A stretch of DNA of 64,000 bases, taken from Mesorhizobium sp. 65-26. Lineage in GTDB: Bacteria > Pseudomonadota > Alphaproteobacteria > Rhizobiales > Rhizobiaceae. A program made the position numbers and the translations under genes. Positions within the stretch are counted from its first letter, which is position 1, and every line of letters starts with the position of its first letter. The notes below the pieces were generated by a model. That model saw only the letters and a program-made list of their open reading frames with translations. It searched no databases and had not been told where the DNA came from. Positions 52,447-62,153 of the stretch are shown here, piece after piece. The DNA lies in assembly GCA_001899205.1 (NCBI GenBank), contig MKVL01000010.1:181166-245165 (forward strand). The letters are read 5' to 3'.

Positions 52447-52890
52447 CTAGAATTTGCGCGGGTCGATGCCCTTGGTTCCCGGCCCGTAGGGGCTGGGATA
52501 GATCTCACCGATGGTCATCAACTCGATCTCGCCGTCGAGCGTCGAGCCGATGATGGCGACATCGGGGTCGTCGCAGCAGAACTCCCAGATGACCTGGCGA
52601 CATTCAGCGCAGGGCACGCCCGAATAGGGGCCGTGGCATACGATGGCGTCGATCTGGCGTTCGCCGGCAGCGGCCATGGCCATGACGGCGTTGCGCTCGG
52701 CATGAACGGATTGCTGCAACGTCACCACCTCGACATTGCAGGCGGCGAAGACGCGGCCCGAGCGTGTGCGCACGGCCGAGCCGACCTTATGGTTCGAATA
52801 GGGCGTGTAGGCGTTCTCGCGCGCAGCGGCGGCAGCCTCCACGAGCTGGCGGTCGGCTGCCGGCAACTGGTCCAGGGTGGTCTTCCTCAT
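52447..52890 (-). CDS. cdd: Cytidine deaminase
   Basis: A 147-residue zinc deaminase. Zinc and catalytic residues are H63 and E65 (VHAERNAV) and C94 and C97 (GVPCAECRQ); the small-subunit bacterial enzyme more often has Cys in place of this His. YTPYSNHKVGSAVRTRSGRV is the typical substrate strand. It converts cytidine or a related pyrimidine nucleoside to uridine. GGGAGAGACCG precedes the ATG at 52890. It lies downstream of the symporter gene on the same strand, which suggests nucleoside uptake and salvage. Confidence 0.88.
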   Translation of the reverse strand: MRKTTLDQLPAADRQLVEAAAAARENAYTPYSNHKVGSAVRTRSGRVFAACNVEVVTLQQSVHAERNAVMAMAAAGERQIDAIVCHGPYSGVPCAECRQVIWEFCCDDPDVAIIGSTLDGEIELMTIGEIYPSPYGPGTKGIDPRKF

Positions 52891-52973
52891 CGGTCTCTCC
52901 CGGTCTGGCGGCCCCTCCCGAATTGATTCAGGACGGGACCGCATGTGATTGGTTTTCCGTAGGTCTTGCCGGC

Positions 52974-54353
52974 TCAGGCGGGCTGGCGCGCCGGCCGGGC
53001 GAAGAGCCCGGCGGCGAAAGGCAGCGCCGACAGAACAAAGCCGACCAGCGAGGCGGGGATGCCGCCCGGCTCGCCCATCAGCACCAGGATCGCCGTTGAG
53101 ACGGCGCCGATGACGATAGTGGCCAGCATCGACCAGGCCGGTATGCGCCAGCCGAAAGTGGCCGACAGGACCGGCAGCAGCAGGCCCGGCACATAGACCG
53201 AGAAGCCAAGCATCAGGATGGTGACGATGCCGGGCACCGACAGCGCGACGACCAGCGCCGCGAGGCCCAGCACGAGCAGCAGCACGCGGCTGGTCCACAG
53301 CCGCTCACGGTCACCGGCATGCGGGCGCAGCCGCGAGATGATGTCACGCTGCAAGGTGGTGGCGGTGATCAGCAGCGTGGTGCTGGCCGTCGACATGGCG
53401 ACCGCAAGGAAGGCCGCCACCAGGATACCGATCACGCCGGTGGGCAGCAATTGCACCATCAGGTCGGGCATGGCGTTGACCGGATTGGTGTCGGCCGGCA
53501 GCAGCGCTTTCGCCGCGATGCCGAGGAAGGTGAGGATGACACCGAAGACGGCCATCAGCACGAAGCCATTGATGAGGCCGCGCCGTGCCGTCTCGGGCGA
53601 GTCGGCCGAAAAGACGCGCTGGAAGCCGATCGTGTCGATGAAGCCGGCCGGCAGCAGCAGGAACCAGACGAACAGCGTCGAGGGCGGTACGTTGGCGAAC
53701 AGGTTGTAGAAGCCCGGTATGTCGCGGGTCGCCTCATAGACATGCGGCACGCCGGGTCCGAAGACGACGAAGAGCGGCGCAACGATGCCGATGACGACGA
53801 GGAAGATCACCGCCTGCAGCACGTCGGTCGCCACCACGGCGAGGAAGCCGCCGAGCATGGTGTAGACGATGACCACCAGGAAGGCGACGACCGCGCCGGT
53901 TCTGGGATCCATGCCCGAGAACAGCGTGAACACCATCGAGATACCGAACACCTGGGCGGCGGCCCAGGCCAGGTAGTTCCAGCTCGTCACCAGCGAGGCG
54001 GCGACGCGCACCGAACCCGGATATTCCTCGGCGACGATGTCGGGCGTCGTCACATGCATGCGCTGGCGCACGGTGCGGGCCAGGAACATGCCCATGAACA
54101 ACAGGCCGATAGGGAAGGTGAACCACCACCACGTGCCCGAAATGCCGTAGCGCACCACCATTTCAGGCGTGCCGAACAGGCCGGCTAGCCCGGTCCAGGA
54201 GGCAAAGGCGGAAATGGTCAGCCAGAGCGGCCCCATGCGGCGGCCGGCGACGATGTAGTCCTCCTCGGTGCGGATCGAGCGGGCGAAGAACAGCCCTATG
54301 GCGGTGACCACCACCAGATAGAGGACGACGATTGCGATATCGAAACTTCCCAT
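52974..54353 (-). CDS. Sodium:solute symporter family protein
   Basis: A 459-residue SSS-family transporter with about 12-13 membrane segments. The N-terminus (FDIAIVVLYLVVVTAIGLFF, then SIRTEEDYIVAGRRMGPLWL) and MSTASTTLLITATTLQRDII are diagnostic. It imports a small organic solute with Na+. The frame is open to 54488, but the ATG at 54353 begins the first helix and has AAAAGAGA upstream. It is divergent from the SAH-hydrolase-like gene and upstream of the deaminase, so a nucleoside-type solute is likely. Confidence 0.9.
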   Translation of the reverse strand: MGSFDIAIVVLYLVVVTAIGLFFARSIRTEEDYIVAGRRMGPLWLTISAFASWTGLAGLFGTPEMVVRYGISGTWWWFTFPIGLLFMGMFLARTVRQRMHVTTPDIVAEEYPGSVRVAASLVTSWNYLAWAAAQVFGISMVFTLFSGMDPRTGAVVAFLVVIVYTMLGGFLAVVATDVLQAVIFLVVIGIVAPLFVVFGPGVPHVYEATRDIPGFYNLFANVPPSTLFVWFLLLPAGFIDTIGFQRVFSADSPETARRGLINGFVLMAVFGVILTFLGIAAKALLPADTNPVNAMPDLMVQLLPTGVIGILVAAFLAVAMSTASTTLLITATTLQRDIISRLRPHAGDRERLWTSRVLLLVLGLAALVVALSVPGIVTILMLGFSVYVPGLLLPVLSATFGWRIPAWSMLATIVIGAVSTAILVLMGEPGGIPASLVGFVLSALPFAAGLFARPARQPA

Positions 54354-54464
54354 TCTCTTTTCCCCTGATTTCGACAGGCCGGGTGCGCGCCGCGGCTCCG
54401 TGACGCGCTCGCCTTTCCGCATCCCCTCTCGGCGCGGGGCTTGACGACCCTTCGATGAATTTGT

Positions 54465-54491
54465 CACATGCAAAAAAGTTTTTTGCAAGTG
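54465..54491. promoter_or_regulatory. 27-bp near-perfect inverted repeat, candidate IclR operator
   Basis: Arms TGCAAAAAA (54469-54477) and TTTTTTGCA (54479-54487) are perfectly complementary around a single central G; outside one mismatch the symmetry resumes with CAC (54465-54467) and GTG (54489-54491). It lies between the divergent symporter and SAH-hydrolase-like genes, 42 bp before the latter's start. The IclR gene downstream encodes the likely binding protein. Confidence 0.7.
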
Positions 54492-54532
54492 CTGATAGAG
54501 ACTGCACCAAAATCAACCGAGTGGAGGCGTCG

Positions 54533-55732
54533 ATGACCCAATTCCCCGAGACGGCGACGGCCGCGCTGGCAGCCGCCGGTGGCGCGCGTGTCGCCTGGAT
54601 CCGTTCGCGCATGGCGCTGCTTGCGGCGCTGCGCGAGGAATTCCGCCGCGAGCGGCCCTTCGCAGGGCGGCGCATCGGTGTGTCGCTGCATATCGAGCCG
54701 AAGACGGCGGTGCTGCTCGAAGTGCTGGCCGAGGGCGGCGCCGAGATCGTCGGCACCGGCAATCACGGCTCGACGCAGGACGATATCGTCGCCTTCCTGC
54801 GCGGGCAGGGCATCGGGGTGTTCGGCAGCCGCGCCGACACGCTGGACGACCACCATGCCAATCTCGCGCGGGTGCTCGACGCCAGGCCCGACATTCTGCT
54901 CGACAATGGCGCGGACCTTGCCGCCGGCACCGTGGAGCGCGGTACGGCGGGCGCCATCATCGGCGGCACGGAGGAGACCACTTCGGGCGGCGACCGGCTG
55001 CGCGGGGAGCTCATGGGCAAGGTGCCGTTCCCCTCCATCGTCATCAACGACAGTCCGCTCAAGGCGATCGGCGAGAACAAGCACGCTGTCGGCCAGTCGG
55101 TGGTGGAGAGCTTCATGCGCATCACCAACCTCATGGTGCCGGGCCGCCGATTCTGCGTCGTCGGCTATGGCTGGTGCGGGCGCGGCATCGCGCAATACCT
55201 ACGTGCGCTCGGCGGGCGGGTCGCCATTGTCGAGGTCGACGAGATCAAGGCGCTGGAGGCCGCGCTCGACGGCTACCGCGTCGCGCCGCTCGCCGATCTC
55301 GCGCCGTGGGCGGAGGTCTTCATCACCGCCACGGGGCGCCCGGGCGTGCTGCCGGCCGAGGCCATCGGCGCCATGGCCGATGGCGCGGTGCTGGCCAATT
55401 CCGGGCATTTCTCCTGGGAGATCGACGTCGATGGGCTGCGGTCAATGACCCGCGCGGAGACCGATCTCGACGGCACGCTGCGGCGCTTCGACCTCGCCAA
55501 TGGACGCCATGTCGTGCTTGTCGCCGACGGGCGCATGTTCAACCTCGCGGGCGTCGCGCCGAAGGGCAACTCGATCGAATCCATGGATATCGGCTTCATG
55601 CTGCAGGCGCTGTCGCTGCAGAGGGTGGCGCTGTCGGCCGCCGGCCTCGCACCTGGCGCGCAGCCGGTGCCCGACGACATCAACCGGCGCATCGCCCGCG
55701 CCATGCTGGCCGCCATGGGCGCGGCGCGCTGA
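54533..55732 (+). CDS. S-adenosylhomocysteine hydrolase-like protein with altered active site
   Basis: A 399-residue homologue of adenosylhomocysteinase. Conserved: VSLHIEPKTAVLLEVLAEGG, TGNHGSTQDDI, EETTSGGDRLRGE, the Rossmann segment VVGYGWCGRGIAQ and NSGHFSWEIDVDG. Changed by alignment from memory: LDDGGD is LLDNGAD; the Lys of NDSPLK is kept but the following Asp aligns with Glu; the ATGHP adenine-contact region is VAPKGN; the C-terminal Lys/Tyr tail is missing. It probably acts on a related nucleoside thioether or uses NAD in the same chemistry on another substrate. GGAGG precedes the ATG at 54533. Confidence 0.82.
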   Translation: MTQFPETATAALAAAGGARVAWIRSRMALLAALREEFRRERPFAGRRIGVSLHIEPKTAVLLEVLAEGGAEIVGTGNHGSTQDDIVAFLRGQGIGVFGSRADTLDDHHANLARVLDARPDILLDNGADLAAGTVERGTAGAIIGGTEETTSGGDRLRGELMGKVPFPSIVINDSPLKAIGENKHAVGQSVVESFMRITNLMVPGRRFCVVGYGWCGRGIAQYLRALGGRVAIVEVDEIKALEAALDGYRVAPLADLAPWAEVFITATGRPGVLPAEAIGAMADGAVLANSGHFSWEIDVDGLRSMTRAETDLDGTLRRFDLANGRHVVLVADGRMFNLAGVAPKGNSIESMDIGFMLQALSLQRVALSAAGLAPGAQPVPDDINRRIARAMLAAMGAAR

Positions 55733-55781
55733 TTGTGCTACTGCGCATCCTCGATCGGTCGCCGGGGAAGGATTGCGGAGC

Positions 55782-56561
55782 ATGGCGGGCAAGGGCGGCG
55801 CGGAAGCGCCGGACTATTCGGTTCCTGCGCTGGAGAAGGCGTTCGACGTCATCGAACTGCTGGCCGGCCAGAAGGAAGGGCTGAATCAGGGGCAGATTTC
55901 CGAGGCGGTGGGCCGCTCGATCCACCAGATCTACCGCGTGCTGCAGGCGCTGGAGCGACGTGGCTACATCTTCCGCGACCGACCGGCGGGGCTCTACTAC
56001 CTGTCGACGCGCATGTTCGAGCTGGCGCATCGGCACGAGCCGCTGCGCGGACTGGAACAGGCGGCGCTGCCTTCGATGCGGCGCCTGTCCGATGTCATCC
56101 GCCAGTCCTGCAACCTGGGCATCCACAATGCCGGCCGGGTGCTGATCCTGGCGCAGGTGGAAAGCCCGGCGGCCTTCGGCTTCCGGGTGCGCGTCGGCGC
56201 GGAGTTCCCGCTGTTCGGCACCGCCACCGGCCGCACGCTGATGGCCTTCCAGCCAGAGGACGTGGCCGACAGGTGGCTGGAAGCCGGCGAGGCCGGAGAC
56301 GAGGCGGCTCGGATCCGGACCGCCCTTGCCGGCATCCGCGCGACGGGCCATGCCGAGGTCGCCGATGCGCAGCAGCCTGGCGTCACGGATCTCGCCTTTC
56401 CCGTGCTGGGGCCATTCGGCGCGGCGGTCGCGGCGCTGACCGTGCCTTACATCGCCACCACCTACAGCACGCTCGACCTCGCCACCGTGCGGCGCCAAGC
56501 GGCGGATGCCGCAAACGAGATCGGCGCGGTCTTGGCCGGAGCCGGCCAGCCGTCCCCCTGA
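55782..56561 (+). CDS. IclR-family transcriptional regulator
   Basis: A 259-residue IclR regulator: HTH at about residues 15-75 (VPALEKAFDVIELLAGQKEG, LNQGQISEAVGRSIHQIYRV) and effector domain at about 90-255 (SCNLGIHNAGRVLILAQVES, FGTATGRTLMAF, TDLAFPVLGPFGAAVAALTV). GGAG before the ATG at 55782. It follows the SAH-hydrolase-like gene by 49 bp, same strand, and probably regulates the symporter/SAH-hydrolase divergent promoter through the 27-bp inverted repeat. Confidence 0.92.
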   Translation: MAGKGGAEAPDYSVPALEKAFDVIELLAGQKEGLNQGQISEAVGRSIHQIYRVLQALERRGYIFRDRPAGLYYLSTRMFELAHRHEPLRGLEQAALPSMRRLSDVIRQSCNLGIHNAGRVLILAQVESPAAFGFRVRVGAEFPLFGTATGRTLMAFQPEDVADRWLEAGEAGDEAARIRTALAGIRATGHAEVADAQQPGVTDLAFPVLGPFGAAVAALTVPYIATTYSTLDLATVRRQAADAANEIGAVLAGAGQPSP

Positions 56562-56718: not shown

Positions 56719-57480
56719 TTGACGAACGATCCTGAAACGATCGAATCCGGCACCATGCCGGTGGCCAGCCTTGGGCGTAGCGATCGCGACCAGATGTTTT
56801 CGCTCTACGAGACCTATTACGACGCCACGCATCGCGATCGTTTCGAGAGCGACCTTGCCGAGAAGGACGCGGTCGTCGTCATCCGGCGCAAGGAGGCGAT
56901 CATAGGCTTTTCCACCTTCCTGGTGAGGGAGCAGCGCATAGACGGCCAGCCGATCCACTATCTGTTTTCCGGCGACACCGTGCTGCATTCGGCGAGCTGG
57001 GGCGACCCGGTGCTGCTGCGCGCATGGTTCCGCGCCGCCGGCGCCGTCAAGGCCAGGATCGGCGAGGACAGGCTGTTCTGGTTCTCGATCATGATGGGCC
57101 ATCGCACCTTCCGCATCCTGCCCAACTTCTTTCGCGAGTTCGTTCCGGCGATCGATCCGCTCGAGCATTCGACAAGTCCCGCCCGGCCTGGTGTGGCGCG
57201 GCTGGAGCGTATCCGAAACGCCATCGCCAAGGCGCGCTATGGCGCGCATTTCGACCCGGCCACCGGGCTCATCGACTTCGGACCCTCGCAGGGGCATCTG
57301 CGGCAGGAATGGGCGGGCGTGGAGGAAACGGCGACGCGCAACCGCTTCGCGGCCTTCTTCCTGCGGGCCAATCCGCATCACTACCGGGGTGTCGAACTCG
57401 CCTGCCTGGCTGAGTTCGACACCGCCAACCTCAAGCGCTACGGCGCCACCAGCTTCGCCGAGGGATTGAGCGGTGGCTAG
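56719..57480 (+). CDS. Unrecognised protein coupled to a GH3-family gene, possible acyltransferase fold
   Basis: A 253-residue protein without a family I can name. Strands and helices in residues 20-150 (MFSLYETYYDATHRDRFESD, AVVVIRRKEAIIGFSTFLVR, HYLFSGDTVLHSASWGD, FWFSIMMGHRTFRILPNFF) resemble a GNAT-like N-acyltransferase core, though no clear acetyl-CoA loop is visible. No signal peptide. Its stop overlaps the start of the GH3-family gene by 8 bp, so the two products are made together and probably act in one pathway. Confidence 0.72.
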   Translation: MTNDPETIESGTMPVASLGRSDRDQMFSLYETYYDATHRDRFESDLAEKDAVVVIRRKEAIIGFSTFLVREQRIDGQPIHYLFSGDTVLHSASWGDPVLLRAWFRAAGAVKARIGEDRLFWFSIMMGHRTFRILPNFFREFVPAIDPLEHSTSPARPGVARLERIRNAIAKARYGAHFDPATGLIDFGPSQGHLRQEWAGVEETATRNRFAAFFLRANPHHYRGVELACLAEFDTANLKRYGATSFAEGLSGG

Positions 57481-59092
57481 AGTGGGCGACGGCGCCAGCC
57501 CGTCGCCGGGGCGCGTCGAAGCGGCATGGACGCGCATCGCGGAAGGTGCGGCGGCGGCCGATAACCGTTTCGCTACACGGCTCGGCGACGTCGAGGCGGC
57601 GCAGCGCGCTACCCTTTCCGGGCTGCTCGCCGACAATGCCGGCACCGTGTTCGGTGGGGAGCATGGCTTTTCCGGCATCGGCTCGGCCGAAATCTTCCGG
57701 GAGCGCGTGCCGATCTCCGGCTACAACGGCTTCAAGCCCTATGTTGAGCGGCTGATCGCAGGCGAGGCGGGCGTGCTGACCAGCGAGCCGGTGCGCTTCC
57801 TGGAACAGACCGGCGGCTCCTCCGGCGGCTCGAAATACATTCCCTACACCGACAGCAGCCTGCGGGCCTTCACCGACTGCCTGCATCCGTGGCTCGCCGA
57901 CCTCATCCGGCGCCGGCCCGGCGTGACGCGCGGCCATGCCTATTTCGCGCTGAGCCCGGTCGGCCGTTCTCTTGAGGCGCGTGTCGGCGGCCACCGCCTG
58001 GGCAGTCCGGTGCCCTTTGCCTATTTCGGGGCGCTGCGCGACAGCCTGATCGAATTGTCGGCGGTGCCGATGGAATTGCGGCTGCTGGCCGACTTCGAGA
58101 CCTGGCAGCGGCGCACCTGCCTCGACCTGCTGGCGGCGGAGGACCTTGCGCTGATCTGGGTGTGGAGCCCAACCTATCTGACCGAGTTGTTGCGCGCCAT
58201 GCGCCGCGACGCCGCCAGCCTGCTTCCAGAGCTGGCGATGCGGCTCGCTGCCGTCCAGCCCTCCGATGCGGTCCGGCGTCGCATCGCCGCGTTGGAGACC
58301 GCGCTCGGCGGGGCCGGCCCGCTCGGCGCCCTGTGGCCGAGGCTCGACACGATAAGCTGCTGGACCGATGCCGCGAGCAAGGGGTTCGCCGACGAGATCA
58401 GAGCGCTGTTTCCGGGCGTCTTCATCCAGTCGAAGGGCCTGATGTCGACAGAAGCCGCCGTCTCGTTCCCTTACGGCGAAGGGCCGGGCTGTCTTCTGGC
58501 GGCCGGCAGCGGCTTCTTCGAGTTCATCGATGCCTCGGGCGCCGGTCGTTTTGCGTGGCAGATCGAGGCCGGCCAGACCTACCGGCTCATCGTCACCACA
58601 GCCGCCGGTCTCTACCGCTACGACACGCACGATATGGTGGAGGTGACCGGCTTCACCGGCGACACGCCGCGCTTGCGCTTTCTCGGCCGCGAAGGGCTGG
58701 TGTCGGATCTGTGCGGCGAAAAGCTGACCGAGCCCTTCGTGGCAAGCTGCCTCGGCGAAGTGGGATTGGCAGGCGAGCCCTACGCGCTGCTCGTGGCGAC
58801 ATCGGCGCCGCGCCCGGGTTATCGCCTCTATGTCGAGGCGGGGCCGGCGGGCATCGATGCCGACCTGCTCGGCCCAAGCCTGGACCGGGCGCTCTCGGCC
58901 AACCCGCAATATGAATATGCCCGTCGGATCGGCCAGCTCGACCCGTTGCGGGCAAAGACGGTCGTCGATCTCTACGGACGGCTGAAGCGCCACCGCCTGC
59001 GGGCCGGCATGAGCATCGCCGGTATGAAGGCCCCGGTGCTGATCGGCAACGCCGATGCCGGGCTGGTGTCGGCGTTCGAGACGGACAGCTGA
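57473..59092 (+). CDS. GH3-family acyl-acid amido synthetase
   Basis: A 539-residue member of the GH3 family, which adenylates a carboxylic acid and joins it to an amine, as plant enzymes do for auxin and jasmonate. The three ATP motifs can be seen: EQTGGSSGGSKYIPYT (111-126), MSTEAAVSFP (about 324-333) and GLYRYDTHDMVEVTGF (379-394), followed by FLGREGLVSDLCGEKLTE (403-420). The family is rare in bacteria and their substrates are mostly unknown. It starts with GTG inside the preceding gene's end. Convergent to it lies a cytochrome P450. Confidence 0.88.
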   Translation: MARVGDGASPSPGRVEAAWTRIAEGAAAADNRFATRLGDVEAAQRATLSGLLADNAGTVFGGEHGFSGIGSAEIFRERVPISGYNGFKPYVERLIAGEAGVLTSEPVRFLEQTGGSSGGSKYIPYTDSSLRAFTDCLHPWLADLIRRRPGVTRGHAYFALSPVGRSLEARVGGHRLGSPVPFAYFGALRDSLIELSAVPMELRLLADFETWQRRTCLDLLAAEDLALIWVWSPTYLTELLRAMRRDAASLLPELAMRLAAVQPSDAVRRRIAALETALGGAGPLGALWPRLDTISCWTDAASKGFADEIRALFPGVFIQSKGLMSTEAAVSFPYGEGPGCLLAAGSGFFEFIDASGAGRFAWQIEAGQTYRLIVTTAAGLYRYDTHDMVEVTGFTGDTPRLRFLGREGLVSDLCGEKLTEPFVASCLGEVGLAGEPYALLVATSAPRPGYRLYVEAGPAGIDADLLGPSLDRALSANPQYEYARRIGQLDPLRAKTVVDLYGRLKRHRLRAGMSIAGMKAPVLIGNADAGLVSAFETDS

Positions 59093-59188
59093 GCCGCCGG
59101 GCCGCAGCCGGTTGGGCGTTCCGGCTCACGACCTGATTCAAGCGGCCGTGCCAAGCCTTTGTTCTCGATGGGCCAATGCCGTCAGGCG

Positions 59189-60400
59189 TCACGCGGGGCT
59201 GGCTCTCAGCACGAGACGGTCGAGGCCACGGATCGAGGAATTGTCCATCCAGTCGGCGGCGACCGGCTCGATCGCCCGCCAGCGGTCGAGCAGCGCGCTC
59301 AGCACCATGGCGCCCTCCATCTCGGCCAGAGCGCGGCCGATGCAGACATGAGCGCCACGGCCGAAGGCGAGGTTCTGCCGTCCGGCCCGGCCGAGGTCGA
59401 AGCGCGCCGGATCGGCGAACTGCGCGGGGTCGCGGTTGGCGGCGCCGATCAGGAGCACGATCAGGCTGCCCGCCTCGATGCTCTCGCCAGCAAGCTCGAC
59501 CGGCCTCAGCGGCCATCGGCAGATCTTCTGCACCGGGCTTTCCAGCCGTAGTGTCTCGGCGATGGCGGCCGTAACCAGCCGCCTGTCGGCACCGAGCGCG
59601 CGCCATGCCTCCGGTGTTTGGGCGAGATGATGCAGCATGTTGCCAAGCAGGTGCACGGTGGTTTCGTGGCCGGCGAAGGCGAGGAAAGCGAGGTTGCGCC
59701 CGGCGACCTCTATGCCGAGCGCCTCGACGAGGCCGGGCAGGCCGGCCAGCAGCGGCGGCAGGTCACCATCGGCGAGCAGGCGCCGCGCCAGTCCGGTGAA
59801 ATAGTCCGACATCGCCTCGATCGCGTCCGGCCCGCCGCTGAAAGCATCGTCGAAGCCGGTATCGAGTATGGCGCGGACCGAGGCCGACCAGCCGCGCAGC
59901 AACGGCATGTCGGTGGCGGGCACGCCGAGCAGGCGACAGATGACCTGTTCGGGCACGGCGCGGGTGAAAGCGGCGACGACGTCGATCTCGCCCTCCGTCT
60001 GGACATTGGCGACGAAGGCGTCGACGGCCTCGGCGACGACCGGCCGCAACGCGGCGATGCCCTTGCCGACGAAGGGCTGTTGCAGGGACTGGCGGATGGC
60101 GGCATGCGCCTCGCCTTCCTGGTACATCAGCCAGTCGTGCAGCGCGGTCCGCTCGAGCATGGCGCCGTCGCCCGGCGGCACATGCGAGAGGGCACGATCG
60201 GCGAGCCCGGCCGACACAAGGTCGTAGCGGCTGACATAGACATCGTCCCACGGCGCGCGCCAGACCGGCGCCAGCGCGCGCATCTCGTCATGGATTGCGT
60301 GGATATCCGAGGCGCCCCGGAAGAAACCGGCACGGACCCCTTGCCAGTCGCGTGCCGCAAGGTCATGCCTGCCATTGGTCGAGGGAAAGTCGCCATGCAT
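59189..60400 (-). CDS. Cytochrome P450
   Basis: A 403-residue soluble bacterial P450. The heme-thiolate loop FGRGAHVCIGRALAEME gives C353; the I-helix is LAFAGHETTVH and the ExxR is ETLR, followed by a VQKICRWPLRPVEL strand. It lacks a membrane anchor. It should hydroxylate a small, probably hydrophobic or carboxylic, substrate with ferredoxin supplied elsewhere. It is convergent with the GH3-family gene and divergent from the ATP-grasp gene, with 68 bp between starts, so all may serve one pathway. Confidence 0.94.
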   Translation of the reverse strand: MHGDFPSTNGRHDLAARDWQGVRAGFFRGASDIHAIHDEMRALAPVWRAPWDDVYVSRYDLVSAGLADRALSHVPPGDGAMLERTALHDWLMYQEGEAHAAIRQSLQQPFVGKGIAALRPVVAEAVDAFVANVQTEGEIDVVAAFTRAVPEQVICRLLGVPATDMPLLRGWSASVRAILDTGFDDAFSGGPDAIEAMSDYFTGLARRLLADGDLPPLLAGLPGLVEALGIEVAGRNLAFLAFAGHETTVHLLGNMLHHLAQTPEAWRALGADRRLVTAAIAETLRLESPVQKICRWPLRPVELAGESIEAGSLIVLLIGAANRDPAQFADPARFDLGRAGRQNLAFGRGAHVCIGRALAEMEGAMVLSALLDRWRAIEPVAADWMDNSSIRGLDRLVLRASPA

Positions 60401-60468
60401 CGTCTTGTAAACAACCCCGTTTCTGCCGGCGGCACGCGCGTCGCGGCATGTCGCGCCAAGATCGATCC

Positions 60469-61533
60469 ATGACAGAAGCCACCCCAGGACCGATCTACTA
60501 TCTGTGCACCGGGCGACATGCTTACACGATGGGCGTGTTCCTTGGCTATTACGAGCATGGCCTGGGCGATGTTGTGCGCATCATTCCCTATGATCAGGTG
60601 GCGCGGCTCGGCACGGTCGCGCCGGGCGCGTTCATCTTCACCGACTTCGAAAGGCTGACGCGGGGGGAGCGCGAGGCGGCGATCGCGCTGTACCGGTCCA
60701 TTGCCGGGCAGAGGCCGGACCTGCCGCTGCTCAATGACCCGGCGACCGCGCCCAGCCGCTTCGAGCTTCTGAAGCGCCTCAACGCCGCCGGCCTCAACGC
60801 TTTCGACGTGCACAGGCTGGGCGACCGGGCCTCGATCCGACGCTTCCCCGTGTTCGTGCGCTGGGAGAGCCGGCACGATCCGCCGTTGACCGGTTTGCTC
60901 GAGAATGCCGATGCGCTGGAGCGGGCGATCGCCGCGCTGCCGAGGGCCGTGCGCGACAATCCCGACCTGATGATCGTCGAATATGGCGCCGCTCCGTCGG
61001 CCGACGGGCGCTTCCGCAAATATTCCGCCTACCGCGTCGGCGACACCATCTATCCCCAGCACTGCTTCATCAATCCGAGCTGGTATATCAAGTTTCCCAG
61101 CACGCGCTTCACCGAAGCCGATCGCGCCGAAAGCCGCGCCTATGTCGAGGATAACCCGCATGCCGGGCAGATCCGCGCCGTCTTCGACCTGGCCGGCCTC
61201 GGCTATGGCCGCATCGACTACGGGCTGGTCGATGGCCGGGTGCAGACTTTCGAGATCAACAACAATCCGACCGTCCTGGCGCGGCCGCCCGGCTGGGAGG
61301 CCGGCGTGAACTACAGCCGCTACGCCGACATGCATGCCGCCGCCCTGCGGGCGCTGATGCGGCCAGCCGGCGGCGTGCCCTTGCGCCTCGGCGGCGGCAG
61401 CCTTGCGGTCGATGCCGTGCATGCTAGCGCCATGCGCGCGGTGCGCCGCCGCATCGCGCTGTTCAGGCTGCGGCGAAGCCTGTCGATCAAGACGCTGAAG
61501 AAACGGCTCGCCGCCCGCTTCGGCGGCGCCTGA
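60469..61533 (+). CDS. ATP-grasp-fold enzyme (RimK-like), substrate unknown
   Basis: A 354-residue protein with ATP-grasp features: a central lid strand VFVRWESRHDPP, hinge LMIVEYGAAPSADGRFRKYS, and the Mg-binding end GYGRIDYGLVDGRVQTFEIN followed by NNPTV (Asp/Glu/Asn in the right order). The C-terminal 60 residues are Arg-rich. ATP-grasp enzymes ligate a carboxylate, through acyl phosphate, to an amine or thiol. No closer relative is recognised. It is divergent from the P450 gene; no good ribosome site is visible before the ATG at 60469. Confidence 0.78.
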   Translation: MTEATPGPIYYLCTGRHAYTMGVFLGYYEHGLGDVVRIIPYDQVARLGTVAPGAFIFTDFERLTRGEREAAIALYRSIAGQRPDLPLLNDPATAPSRFELLKRLNAAGLNAFDVHRLGDRASIRRFPVFVRWESRHDPPLTGLLENADALERAIAALPRAVRDNPDLMIVEYGAAPSADGRFRKYSAYRVGDTIYPQHCFINPSWYIKFPSTRFTEADRAESRAYVEDNPHAGQIRAVFDLAGLGYGRIDYGLVDGRVQTFEINNNPTVLARPPGWEAGVNYSRYADMHAAALRALMRPAGGVPLRLGGGSLAVDAVHASAMRAVRRRIALFRLRRSLSIKTLKKRLAARFGGA

Positions 61534-61609
61534 CCAGTCGCGCGCCAGAACGACTCTTGCCATGCGACTGGCGGGACGGCAGAAGCGCGCCATGCCGACG
61601 GAGCCATGC

Positions 61610-62081
61610 ATGCTAATCGAGACCTGGCGAGGCGACCGCGCCGCGCTGTTGCCGCTGTTCGAACTGGCCGACGATTCACCCGCGCAGGTCGCGGCTTACA
61701 TCGGACTTGGCGAGGTGCTGGTGGCGCTGGAGGCGGCGGGCTCCGATGTCCTCGGCCACCTGCAACTCGTCGGCGATGGCGAGGCGCTCGAGTTGAAGAG
61801 CATGGCGGTGATCGCGGCGCGCCGGGGCGAAGGCATCGGCCGCGCGCTCGTCGAGGCGGCAATCGCTGGCTGCCGCGCGCGTGGCGCCTGACCGTCTCCA
61901 CCGCGGCTGCCGACACCGGCAACCTGCGTTTCTACCAGCGCCAGGGCTTCCGCATGCTGCGCATCGTGCGCGACGCCTTCGGTCCAGCGACGGATACGCG
62001 GCGGACCTGCCGGTGGAGGGCATTCCGCTGCGCGACCAGGTGGTGCTCGACCTCGACCTGTGCGCGCAGCCTTCGGGATAA
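61610..62081 (+). pseudogene. GNAT N-acetyltransferase gene with two frameshifts
   Basis: From the ATG at 61610 (GGAG upstream) the reading frame encodes a GNAT N-terminus and acetyl-CoA loop (LKSMAVIAARRGEGIGRALV) but stops at 61891. The continuation LTVSTAAADTGNLRFYQRQG follows at once in a second frame (about 61892-61995), and the end, ADLPVEGIPLRDQVVLDLDL, is in a third frame to a stop at 62081. Joining the three gives one normal-length GNAT protein. Two single-base losses, or two sequencing errors, explain it. Confidence 0.8.
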
Positions 62082-62099
62082 ATCCAGGCACCAGCCACT

Positions 62100-62117
62100 G
62101 GATCACGAGAGCGTGAT
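62100..62117. terminator. Hairpin after the GNAT pseudogene
   Basis: GATCACG and CGTGATC form a 7-bp stem with a 4-base loop, followed by CGCTTTTCGG. It could terminate upstream transcription; it sits just before a possible ECF-type promoter. Confidence 0.4.
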
Positions 62118-62125
62118 CGCTTTTC

Positions 62126-62153
62126 GGGAATAAACTGGCCGCCGCGCGGGTCT
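62126..62153 (+). promoter_or_regulatory. Possible ECF-sigma promoter
   Basis: GGGAATAAAC at 62126 onward followed after about 16 bp by CGGGTCT resembles a GGAAT-type ECF -35 with a GTC-containing -10. It lies about 40-70 bp before the metallophosphoesterase gene, whose cluster ends with an ECF sigma factor gene. The match is by eye and the -10 is weak. Confidence 0.35.

What the first reader, a model, noticed from the sequence alone, without database searches (positions are those of the whole stretch)
56719..61533. Possible undescribed small-molecule pathway: GH3 synthetase, coupled unknown protein, P450 and ATP-grasp ligase
A bacterial GH3-family gene overlaps an unrecognised gene by 8 bp. 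A soluble P450 is convergent and an RimK-like ATP-grasp gene divergent from the P450. Two different amide- or ester-forming enzymes with an oxygenase suggest synthesis or inactivation of an acyl-amino-acid-like compound. In a plant-associated bacterium, conjugation of a plant hormone acid (auxin or jasmonate type) is an attractive but untested idea.
Basis: partly seen in the sequence, partly recalled or inferred. Interest (0 to 1): 0.8.

Follow-up and report, generated by a model that had tools for sequence, protein, structure and literature searches.

The report
Rhizobial four-gene small-molecule islet
Four neighbouring genes in some Mesorhizobium soil bacteria travel together as a compact unit that probably builds an unknown small amide-type molecule; in related strains the plant-hormone-type (GH3) gene is replaced by a sulfotransferase-like gene.

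Summary
In detail: A 56719-57480+ (unrecognised), GH3 57473-59092+ (8-bp overlap), P450 59189-60400-, ATP-grasp-like gene 60469-61533+ (start 60469, not 60295). The four genes lie in the same order in all 9 distinct Mesorhizobium loci found with this GH3, 65-75% identical to the window, under purifying selection, with no flanking gene common to all.

Two new facts. (1) A has a GNAT fold; outside the genus its homologues are often, not always, near a GH3 (4 of 4 phylum-sample loci, 4 of 12 plasmid records, 0 of 4 class-sample loci). (2) GH3 is not the constant part: the P450 and ATP-grasp genes occur in 12 of 119 Mesorhizobium genomes, 6 with A+GH3 and 6 with A plus a sulfotransferase-like gene and no GH3. 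The two types interleave in the A and P450 trees, not necessarily in the ATP-grasp tree.

Best reading: a biosynthetic islet with a GNAT-P450-ATP-grasp core and an exchangeable GH3 or sulfotransferase; substrate and product unknown. Nothing points to plant hormones: no nodC or nifH over cut-off in the window's genome. The GH3 fails the cut-off of OlsH, the characterised bacterial GH3 (N-acyl-ornithine).

The parts
56719..57480 (+). Gene A: 253-aa GNAT-fold protein, TTG start; conserved core member of the islet
57473..59092 (+). GH3-family protein (539 aa, presumed acyl-acid amido synthetase), overlaps A by 8 bp; exchangeable member
   Evidence: Pfam GH3, GH3_M, GH3_C; GH3 motifs invariant in 9/9; in 6 of 119 Mesorhizobium genomes
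59189..60400 (-). Soluble bacterial cytochrome P450 (403 aa), convergent with GH3
   Evidence: Pfam p450 4.2e-27; FGRGAHVCIG, ETLR and AGHET motifs invariant in 9/9; 12 of 119 genus genomes at E<=1e-100
60401..60468 (.). 68-bp divergent intergenic region between P450 and ATP-grasp starts (65-77 bp in the 9 loci); presumed divergent promoter
   Evidence: coordinates; promoter function not tested
60469..61533 (+). ATP-grasp-like gene D (354 aa), family without a Pfam entry
   Evidence: family alignment with invariant GR-D and E-x-N-x-N-P; weak profile match to D-Ala-D-Ala ligase E 0.009; 12 of 119 genus genomes at E<1e-150, the same 12 as the P450

Best explanation
It is a compact, patchily distributed biosynthetic islet. 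Its core is gene A (GNAT fold), the P450 and the ATP-grasp-like gene; GH3 is one of two interchangeable enzymes, the other being a sulfotransferase-like one. Shown: conserved order, intact catalytic motifs, purifying selection, and GH3/sulfotransferase exclusivity in the loci examined. Inferred: A and the ATP-grasp enzyme assemble an acylated amino-acid or short amide scaffold from ordinary metabolites; the P450 oxidises it; GH3 adenylates a free carboxylate (of the scaffold or of a fatty acid) and joins an amine or amino acid to it, while sister islets sulfonate the scaffold instead. The product would be a small N-acyl or peptide-like specialised metabolite, not a modified host hormone.
For: Four genes collinear in 9 of 9 distinct loci with no flanking gene common to all. 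With the starts I chose, A overlaps GH3 by 8 bp in the window and 11 bp in the 8 relatives. GH3, P450 and ATP-grasp motifs are invariant. dN/dS 0.07-0.28. The P450/ATP-grasp pair is in 12 of 119 genomes, the same 12 for both genes; GH3 in 6 of them; A plus a Sulfotransfer_3-type gene in the other 6 (Pfam run on two of the six), with no GH3 found there and no such sulfotransferase in GH3-type loci (tblastn, E 1e-3, fetched stretches only). Well-supported branches force at least 2 label changes in the A and P450 trees. In 5 of 5 fetched loci of a more distant set (11 genomes), the gene D relative is beside a GNAT-like gene and another P450. Outside the genus A-GH3 keeps company with biosynthesis-type or export genes, and the A and GH3 trees share two well-supported groups.
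Against: No exporter or dedicated regulator lies in the islet. The ATP-grasp call is weak and its model poor (pLDDT 50.3). The ATP-grasp tree does not force a GH3/sulfotransferase switch. The GNAT-like gene beside the distant gene D relatives is not recognisably related to A (hhalign prob 0.2%) and passes a Pfam cut-off in 2 of 4 scanned. Of 8 further loci in the order with gene D relatives, only L052 has a P450-profile match and none has A or GH3; L110 has a methyltransferase-like neighbour instead. No substrate could be read from sequence. A conjugation or detoxification role fits the same gene set.
Confidence: 0.5

Rival explanations
1. An OlsH-like aminolipid pathway: GH3 joins a fatty acid to an amino acid, A adds a second acyl chain, the P450 hydroxylates the chain and the ATP-grasp enzyme extends the head group.
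For: The characterised bacterial GH3 makes N-acyl-ornithine from free fatty acids (PMC12493201, sections read). A and GH3 genes elsewhere sit near fatty acid desaturase genes in L042, L054, L055 and PAP2 genes in L042, L054.
Against: Best NCBIfam match OlsH is 36 bits against a 620-bit cut-off; no OlsI-like hydrolase in the islet; a sulfotransferase-like gene stands in for GH3 in sister islets, odd for the chain-forming step; bigGNAT not found in 6 of 6 Mesorhizobium islet genomes, and no gene of any kind recurs in all the islet flanks.
Confidence: 0.2
2. Conjugation or detoxification of outside carboxylic acids (plant phenolics, xenobiotics): P450 oxidation, then amino-acid conjugation (GH3) or sulfonation, as in phase I/II metabolism.
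For: GH3 and a sulfotransferase-like gene are alternatives beside the same P450, as oxidation followed by conjugation would predict.
Against: Does not explain the constant A and ATP-grasp genes, nor A-GH3 pairs elsewhere with radical SAM, desaturase and export genes. No uptake or catabolic gene is shared by all the islet flanks.
Confidence: 0.13
3. Plant-hormone conjugation (auxin or jasmonate type).
For: Plant GH3 enzymes do this; distant sequence matches to plant GH3 structures (best: GH3.8, E 1.2e-21). The genus contains symbionts, and 2 of 6 islet genomes tested have nodC and nifH.
Against: nodC and nifH are not over cut-off in the other 4 of 6, the window's genome among them; in the two that have them, the islet lies elsewhere. 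Related A-GH3 pairs occur in non-plant settings such as a gull-cloaca Citrobacter plasmid. Nothing specific to hormone chemistry is in the islet. No plant GH3 was in my trees.
Confidence: 0.05
4. Four independently useful genes that merely hitchhike in an integration hot spot beside an rsuA-like gene.
For: 10 of 15 islets are directly beside an rsuA-like gene and 2 more lie within about 7 kb of one, a shared insertion region.
Against: Order and orientation kept in 9 of 9 GH3-type loci, and 3 of them (L008, L013, L014) have no rsuA-like gene in the fetched stretch; flanks vary while the block stays whole; overlapping starts of A and GH3.
Confidence: 0.07

Closest known systems
OlsH/OlsI ornithine-lipid pathway of Singulisphaera acidiphila (PMC12493201)
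   Same: A bacterial GH3-family amide synthetase in a short operon with an acyltransferase-type partner
   Different: 36 bits against the OlsH equivalog cut-off of 620; partner is a GNAT-fold protein, not an alpha/beta hydrolase; extra P450 and ATP-grasp-like genes; GH3 replaceable by a sulfotransferase-like gene
A-GH3-radical SAM-radical SAM-bigGNAT operons in other Pseudomonadota (L042, L054, L075, L076, L077; found here, no paper seen in my searches)
   Same: Homologous A and GH3, adjacent or overlapping
   Different: Two or more radical SAM genes and a ~340-370-aa GNAT-like gene instead of P450 and ATP-grasp; bigGNAT not found in 6 of 6 Mesorhizobium islet genomes, found in 2 of 2 controls
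Plant GH3 acyl-acid amido synthetases (JAR1, GH3.8)
   Same: GH3 domains and nucleotide-binding motifs
   Different: Distant sequence (phmmer E 1.2e-21 at best); substrate of the bacterial enzyme not predictable from it
Streptomyces GH3 genes in polyketide clusters (L058; RubP3 of the rubiginone cluster, PMC8487521 passage)
   Same: A GH3 and P450 genes in one biosynthetic cluster
   Different: PKS-based; the L058 record gave no match to A or gene D; the rubiginone cluster was not searched

Membership tests
GH3 family (Pfam PF03321/PF23571/PF23572) | All three GH3 domains over the curated cut-off | tested here: met
   118.3, 65.7 and 27 bits against 23.6
GH3 family (Pfam PF03321/PF23571/PF23572) | Three nucleotide-binding motifs | tested here: met
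   TGGSSGG-K, MSTE and GLYRYDT-D invariant in 9/9; motif definitions from PMC12493201 section 6; motif II departs from plant YGSSE
GH3 family (Pfam PF03321/PF23571/PF23572) | ATP-dependent adenylation of an acid and amide formation | not testable with these tools
   needs enzyme assay
OlsH lyso-ornithine lipid synthetase (NF052613) | Score over the equivalog cut-off (620 bits) | tested here: not met
   36 bits
OlsH lyso-ornithine lipid synthetase (NF052613) | OlsI alpha/beta hydrolase in the operon | tested here: not met
   the islet holds A, GH3, P450, gene D only; no flanking gene shared by all 9
GNAT superfamily (gene A) | GNAT fold | tested here: met
GNAT superfamily (gene A) | Acyl-CoA pyrophosphate loop Q/R-x-x-G-x-G/A (motif recalled) | tested here: inconclusive
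   RAAGxA-type string fits in 7 of 9 islet members but not in the window (RAAGAV) or L012, lies inside a predicted helix, and is not kept in distant members (read by eye)
Cytochrome P450 | Heme Cys loop, ExxR and I-helix acid-Thr motifs (motifs recalled) | tested here: met
   all invariant in 9/9; Pfam 4.2e-27
ATP-grasp superfamily (gene D) | Match to a curated ATP-grasp profile | tested here: not met
   no ATP-grasp Pfam family in 13 members; hence 'ATP-grasp-like' only
ATP-grasp superfamily (gene D) | C-terminal E-x-N motif collinear with a solved ATP-grasp enzyme | tested here: inconclusive
   GRID...FEINNNP region aligned to D-Ala-D-Ala ligase GRADF...LEVNTAP, E 0.009; marginal score
Plant-hormone conjugating system | Amide synthesis on IAA, jasmonate or salicylate | not testable with these tools
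   needs enzyme assay

The most novel reading that the evidence does not exclude
A family of swap-head biosynthetic islets: one GNAT-P450-ATP-grasp core builds an unknown rhizobial small molecule, and an amide-forming GH3 enzyme or a sulfotransferase are alternative capping enzymes exchanged between strains, often at one chromosomal hot spot, so that sister strains make chemically distinct versions of one signal or antagonist.
Probability: 0.35. Interest if true: 0.75.

Novelty: new variant of a known kind. Interest (0 to 1): 0.55.

Why it matters
It gives bacterial GH3 enzymes, whose substrates outside planctomycetes the OlsH paper leaves open, a defined genetic partner (the A protein) and a natural experiment: Mesorhizobium strains that differ in having GH3 or a sulfotransferase-like gene beside the same three genes. 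Comparing such strains and single-gene deletions could reveal the product and the GH3 substrate directly. It also brings to notice an ATP-grasp-like family with no Pfam entry that in Mesorhizobium repeatedly lies near P450 and GNAT-type genes.

Tried and rejected
Structure of gene D: AlphaFold with 7 rows gave pLDDT 50.3, so no fold search was run on it. Pfam and NCBIfam on A and D homologues gave nothing over cut-off. Profile search of A against solved structures gave nothing useful (best E 0.72). Rejected: OlsH membership; bigGNAT elsewhere in the Mesorhizobium islet genomes (0 of 6, controls 2 of 2); recognisable kinship of A with the GNAT-like gene beside the distant gene D relatives.

A is not tied to GH3 everywhere. 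In the class sample (385 genomes), 5 hits lay outside the genus; 4 were fetched and 0 of 4 had GH3 (L068 is cut by the contig end; the fifth, at a contig end, was not fetched). One of the four has an AMP-binding gene upstream instead. Of 12 plasmid records with an A homologue, 4 also match GH3 and 8 Azospirillum records do not; the one Azospirillum locus fetched has a reductase beside A. In Burkholderia arboris A and GH3 are about 4 kb apart. Of the 10 plasmid records with a GH3 match, 6 have no A match.

Literature: nine searches; among the listed results (some lists were capped: 20 of 27, 20 of 99, 30 of 49,376, 10 of 12) I saw no paper on an A-GH3 pair, a GH3-P450-ATP-grasp set, or the sulfotransferase version. 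That borrelidin's BorL is GH3-like is recalled; one search listed no paper on it. Papers: PMC12493201 abstract plus sections 3 (part 1), 6, 7, 8, 9 (part 1); PMC8487521 and PMC10300848 one passage each (the last concerns another use of 'GH3'); other papers only as search listings.

Limits: genes in Python were picked by a greedy ORF and GC3 rule, so short genes and exact starts in other loci may be wrong; the P450 genes of L101 and L104 were missed that way and taken, and the rsuA-like gene of L009 was missed and taken. Radical SAM genes in L075-L077 were named by likeness to L042's, not by their own Pfam run.
Full report
WHAT IS THERE. The window's genome is of the same genus as loci named Mesorhizobium. 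Four genes fill 56719-61533: A (253 aa, TTG start), a GH3 protein (539 aa) overlapping A by 8 bp, a convergent P450 (403 aa), and a divergent ATP-grasp-like gene D whose start by homology is 60469 (354 aa). GH3 has all three Pfam GH3 domains and the P450 its Pfam domain. A and gene D match no curated family over cut-off.

IT IS A UNIT. GH3 was found in 6 of 119 genomes of the genus. A scan of the genome collection, which reaches only close relatives, gave 6 loci, all Mesorhizobium; three lie on contigs of the same length as ones already found. That leaves 9 distinct loci with the window's. All 9 have the four genes in the same order and orientation; by alignment the relatives' proteins are 65-75% identical to the window's. 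No flanking gene is shared by all 9. Catalytic motifs are invariant. dN/dS is 0.07-0.28 across five pairs per gene, with synonymous sites near saturation in the distant pairs. The P450 and gene D start 65-77 bp apart in all 9.

GH3 IS THE EXCHANGEABLE PART. Genus-wide searches with the P450 and gene D profiles each single out the same 12 of 119 genomes at high score (P450 E<=1e-100; gene D E<1e-150). Six are the GH3 carriers. In the other six (L099-L104), A is present, GH3 is absent, and a Sulfotransfer_3-type gene lies upstream of A in each (Pfam on two of the six). tblastn finds no GH3 in those six loci and no such sulfotransferase in the nine GH3-type loci. Well-supported branches of the A and P450 trees need at least two changes of type; the gene D tree allows one. 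The direction of change is not settled. Both types are often inserted beside an rsuA-like gene: directly adjacent in 10 of 15 loci, within about 7 kb in the window and L102, and not seen in L008, L013 and L014.

THE WIDER GENE D FAMILY. A further 11 Mesorhizobium genomes have a more distant gene D relative (E about 5e-64 to 3e-83); in the 5 fetched, it lies beside a GNAT-like gene and another P450 (four GNATs scanned by Pfam, 2 over a cut-off). That GNAT is not recognisably related to A. One still weaker relative (L110) has a methyltransferase-like neighbour instead. In 8 loci elsewhere in the order, only L052 has a P450-profile match, next to an AMP-binding gene, and none has A or GH3. So the P450 and GNAT company is a Mesorhizobium pattern, not a rule for the whole family.

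THE ATP-GRASP CALL. None of 13 family members matches an ATP-grasp Pfam family. The family profile's best solved-structure match is D-Ala-D-Ala ligase, E 0.009, over the C-terminal GR-D ... E-x-N motif, with a non-significant stretch in the expected place upstream. I take it as ATP-grasp-like with moderate confidence; the model was too poor to help.

HOW IT PROBABLY WORKS. Shown: linkage, exclusivity, motifs, selection. Inferred: A and the ligase make an acylated amino-acid or amide scaffold, the P450 oxidises it, and GH3 joins a carboxylate to an amine, or in sister islets a sulfotransferase sulfonates it. The characterised bacterial GH3, OlsH, joins fatty acids to ornithine (PMC12493201, sections named under Tried and rejected), and its authors expect other substrates in other bacteria. 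The window GH3 scores 36 bits against the OlsH cut-off of 620, so it is not filed as OlsH.

THE HORMONE IDEA. Six of the 9 islet genomes were tested for nodC and nifH; both reach cut-off in 2 (G039, G057), not in the window's genome (estimated 100% complete, 42 contigs). In G039 the islet is 3-4 Mb from them on one contig; in G057 it is on another contig. Nothing in the islet is specific to hormone chemistry. The idea is not excluded, since no substrate can be read from sequence.

NOVELTY. Nine literature searches in an open-licence library listed no description of this gene set; several lists were capped. Each enzyme class is known; the combination, the GNAT partner and the GH3/sulfotransferase exchange appear new. 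I rate it a new variant of a known kind.

Noticed in passing
window 61562-62133: A GNAT gene just downstream of the islet appears split over two frames: 109 aa with a GNAT match, then GNAT-like C-terminal sequence in another frame (second part by eye). Pseudogene or sequencing error.
   Followed up: no
window 52447-56561: Neighbouring genes: a cytidine-deaminase-like gene, a sodium-solute-symporter-like gene, an S-adenosylhomocysteine-hydrolase-like gene and an IclR regulator (last two by Pfam; the first two by eye), possibly a nucleoside-use cluster.
   Followed up: no
L052:6491-10446: AMP-binding ligase, P450 and a gene D relative together in another family of the order: another adenylating enzyme with the same pair of enzyme types.
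   Followed up: partly
L048:12030-13049, L052:10836-11783, L053:8581-9564: A 315-339-aa protein without confident Pfam match recurs near the gene D relatives; likeness seen by eye only.
   Followed up: no
L042, L054, L075, L076, L077: A recurring operon for which my searches showed no description: A homologue, GH3, two radical SAM genes, bigGNAT, in L042 and L054 with desaturase and PAP2 genes.
   Followed up: partly
L058:1-13470: Streptomyces plasmid GH3 gene in a PKS cluster with P450, aminotransferase, F420-type oxidoreductase and thrS, resembling the borrelidin cluster as recalled.
   Followed up: no
L083, L084, L086: Distant relatives of gene D lie in ORFs that also hold tetratricopeptide repeats.
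   Followed up: no
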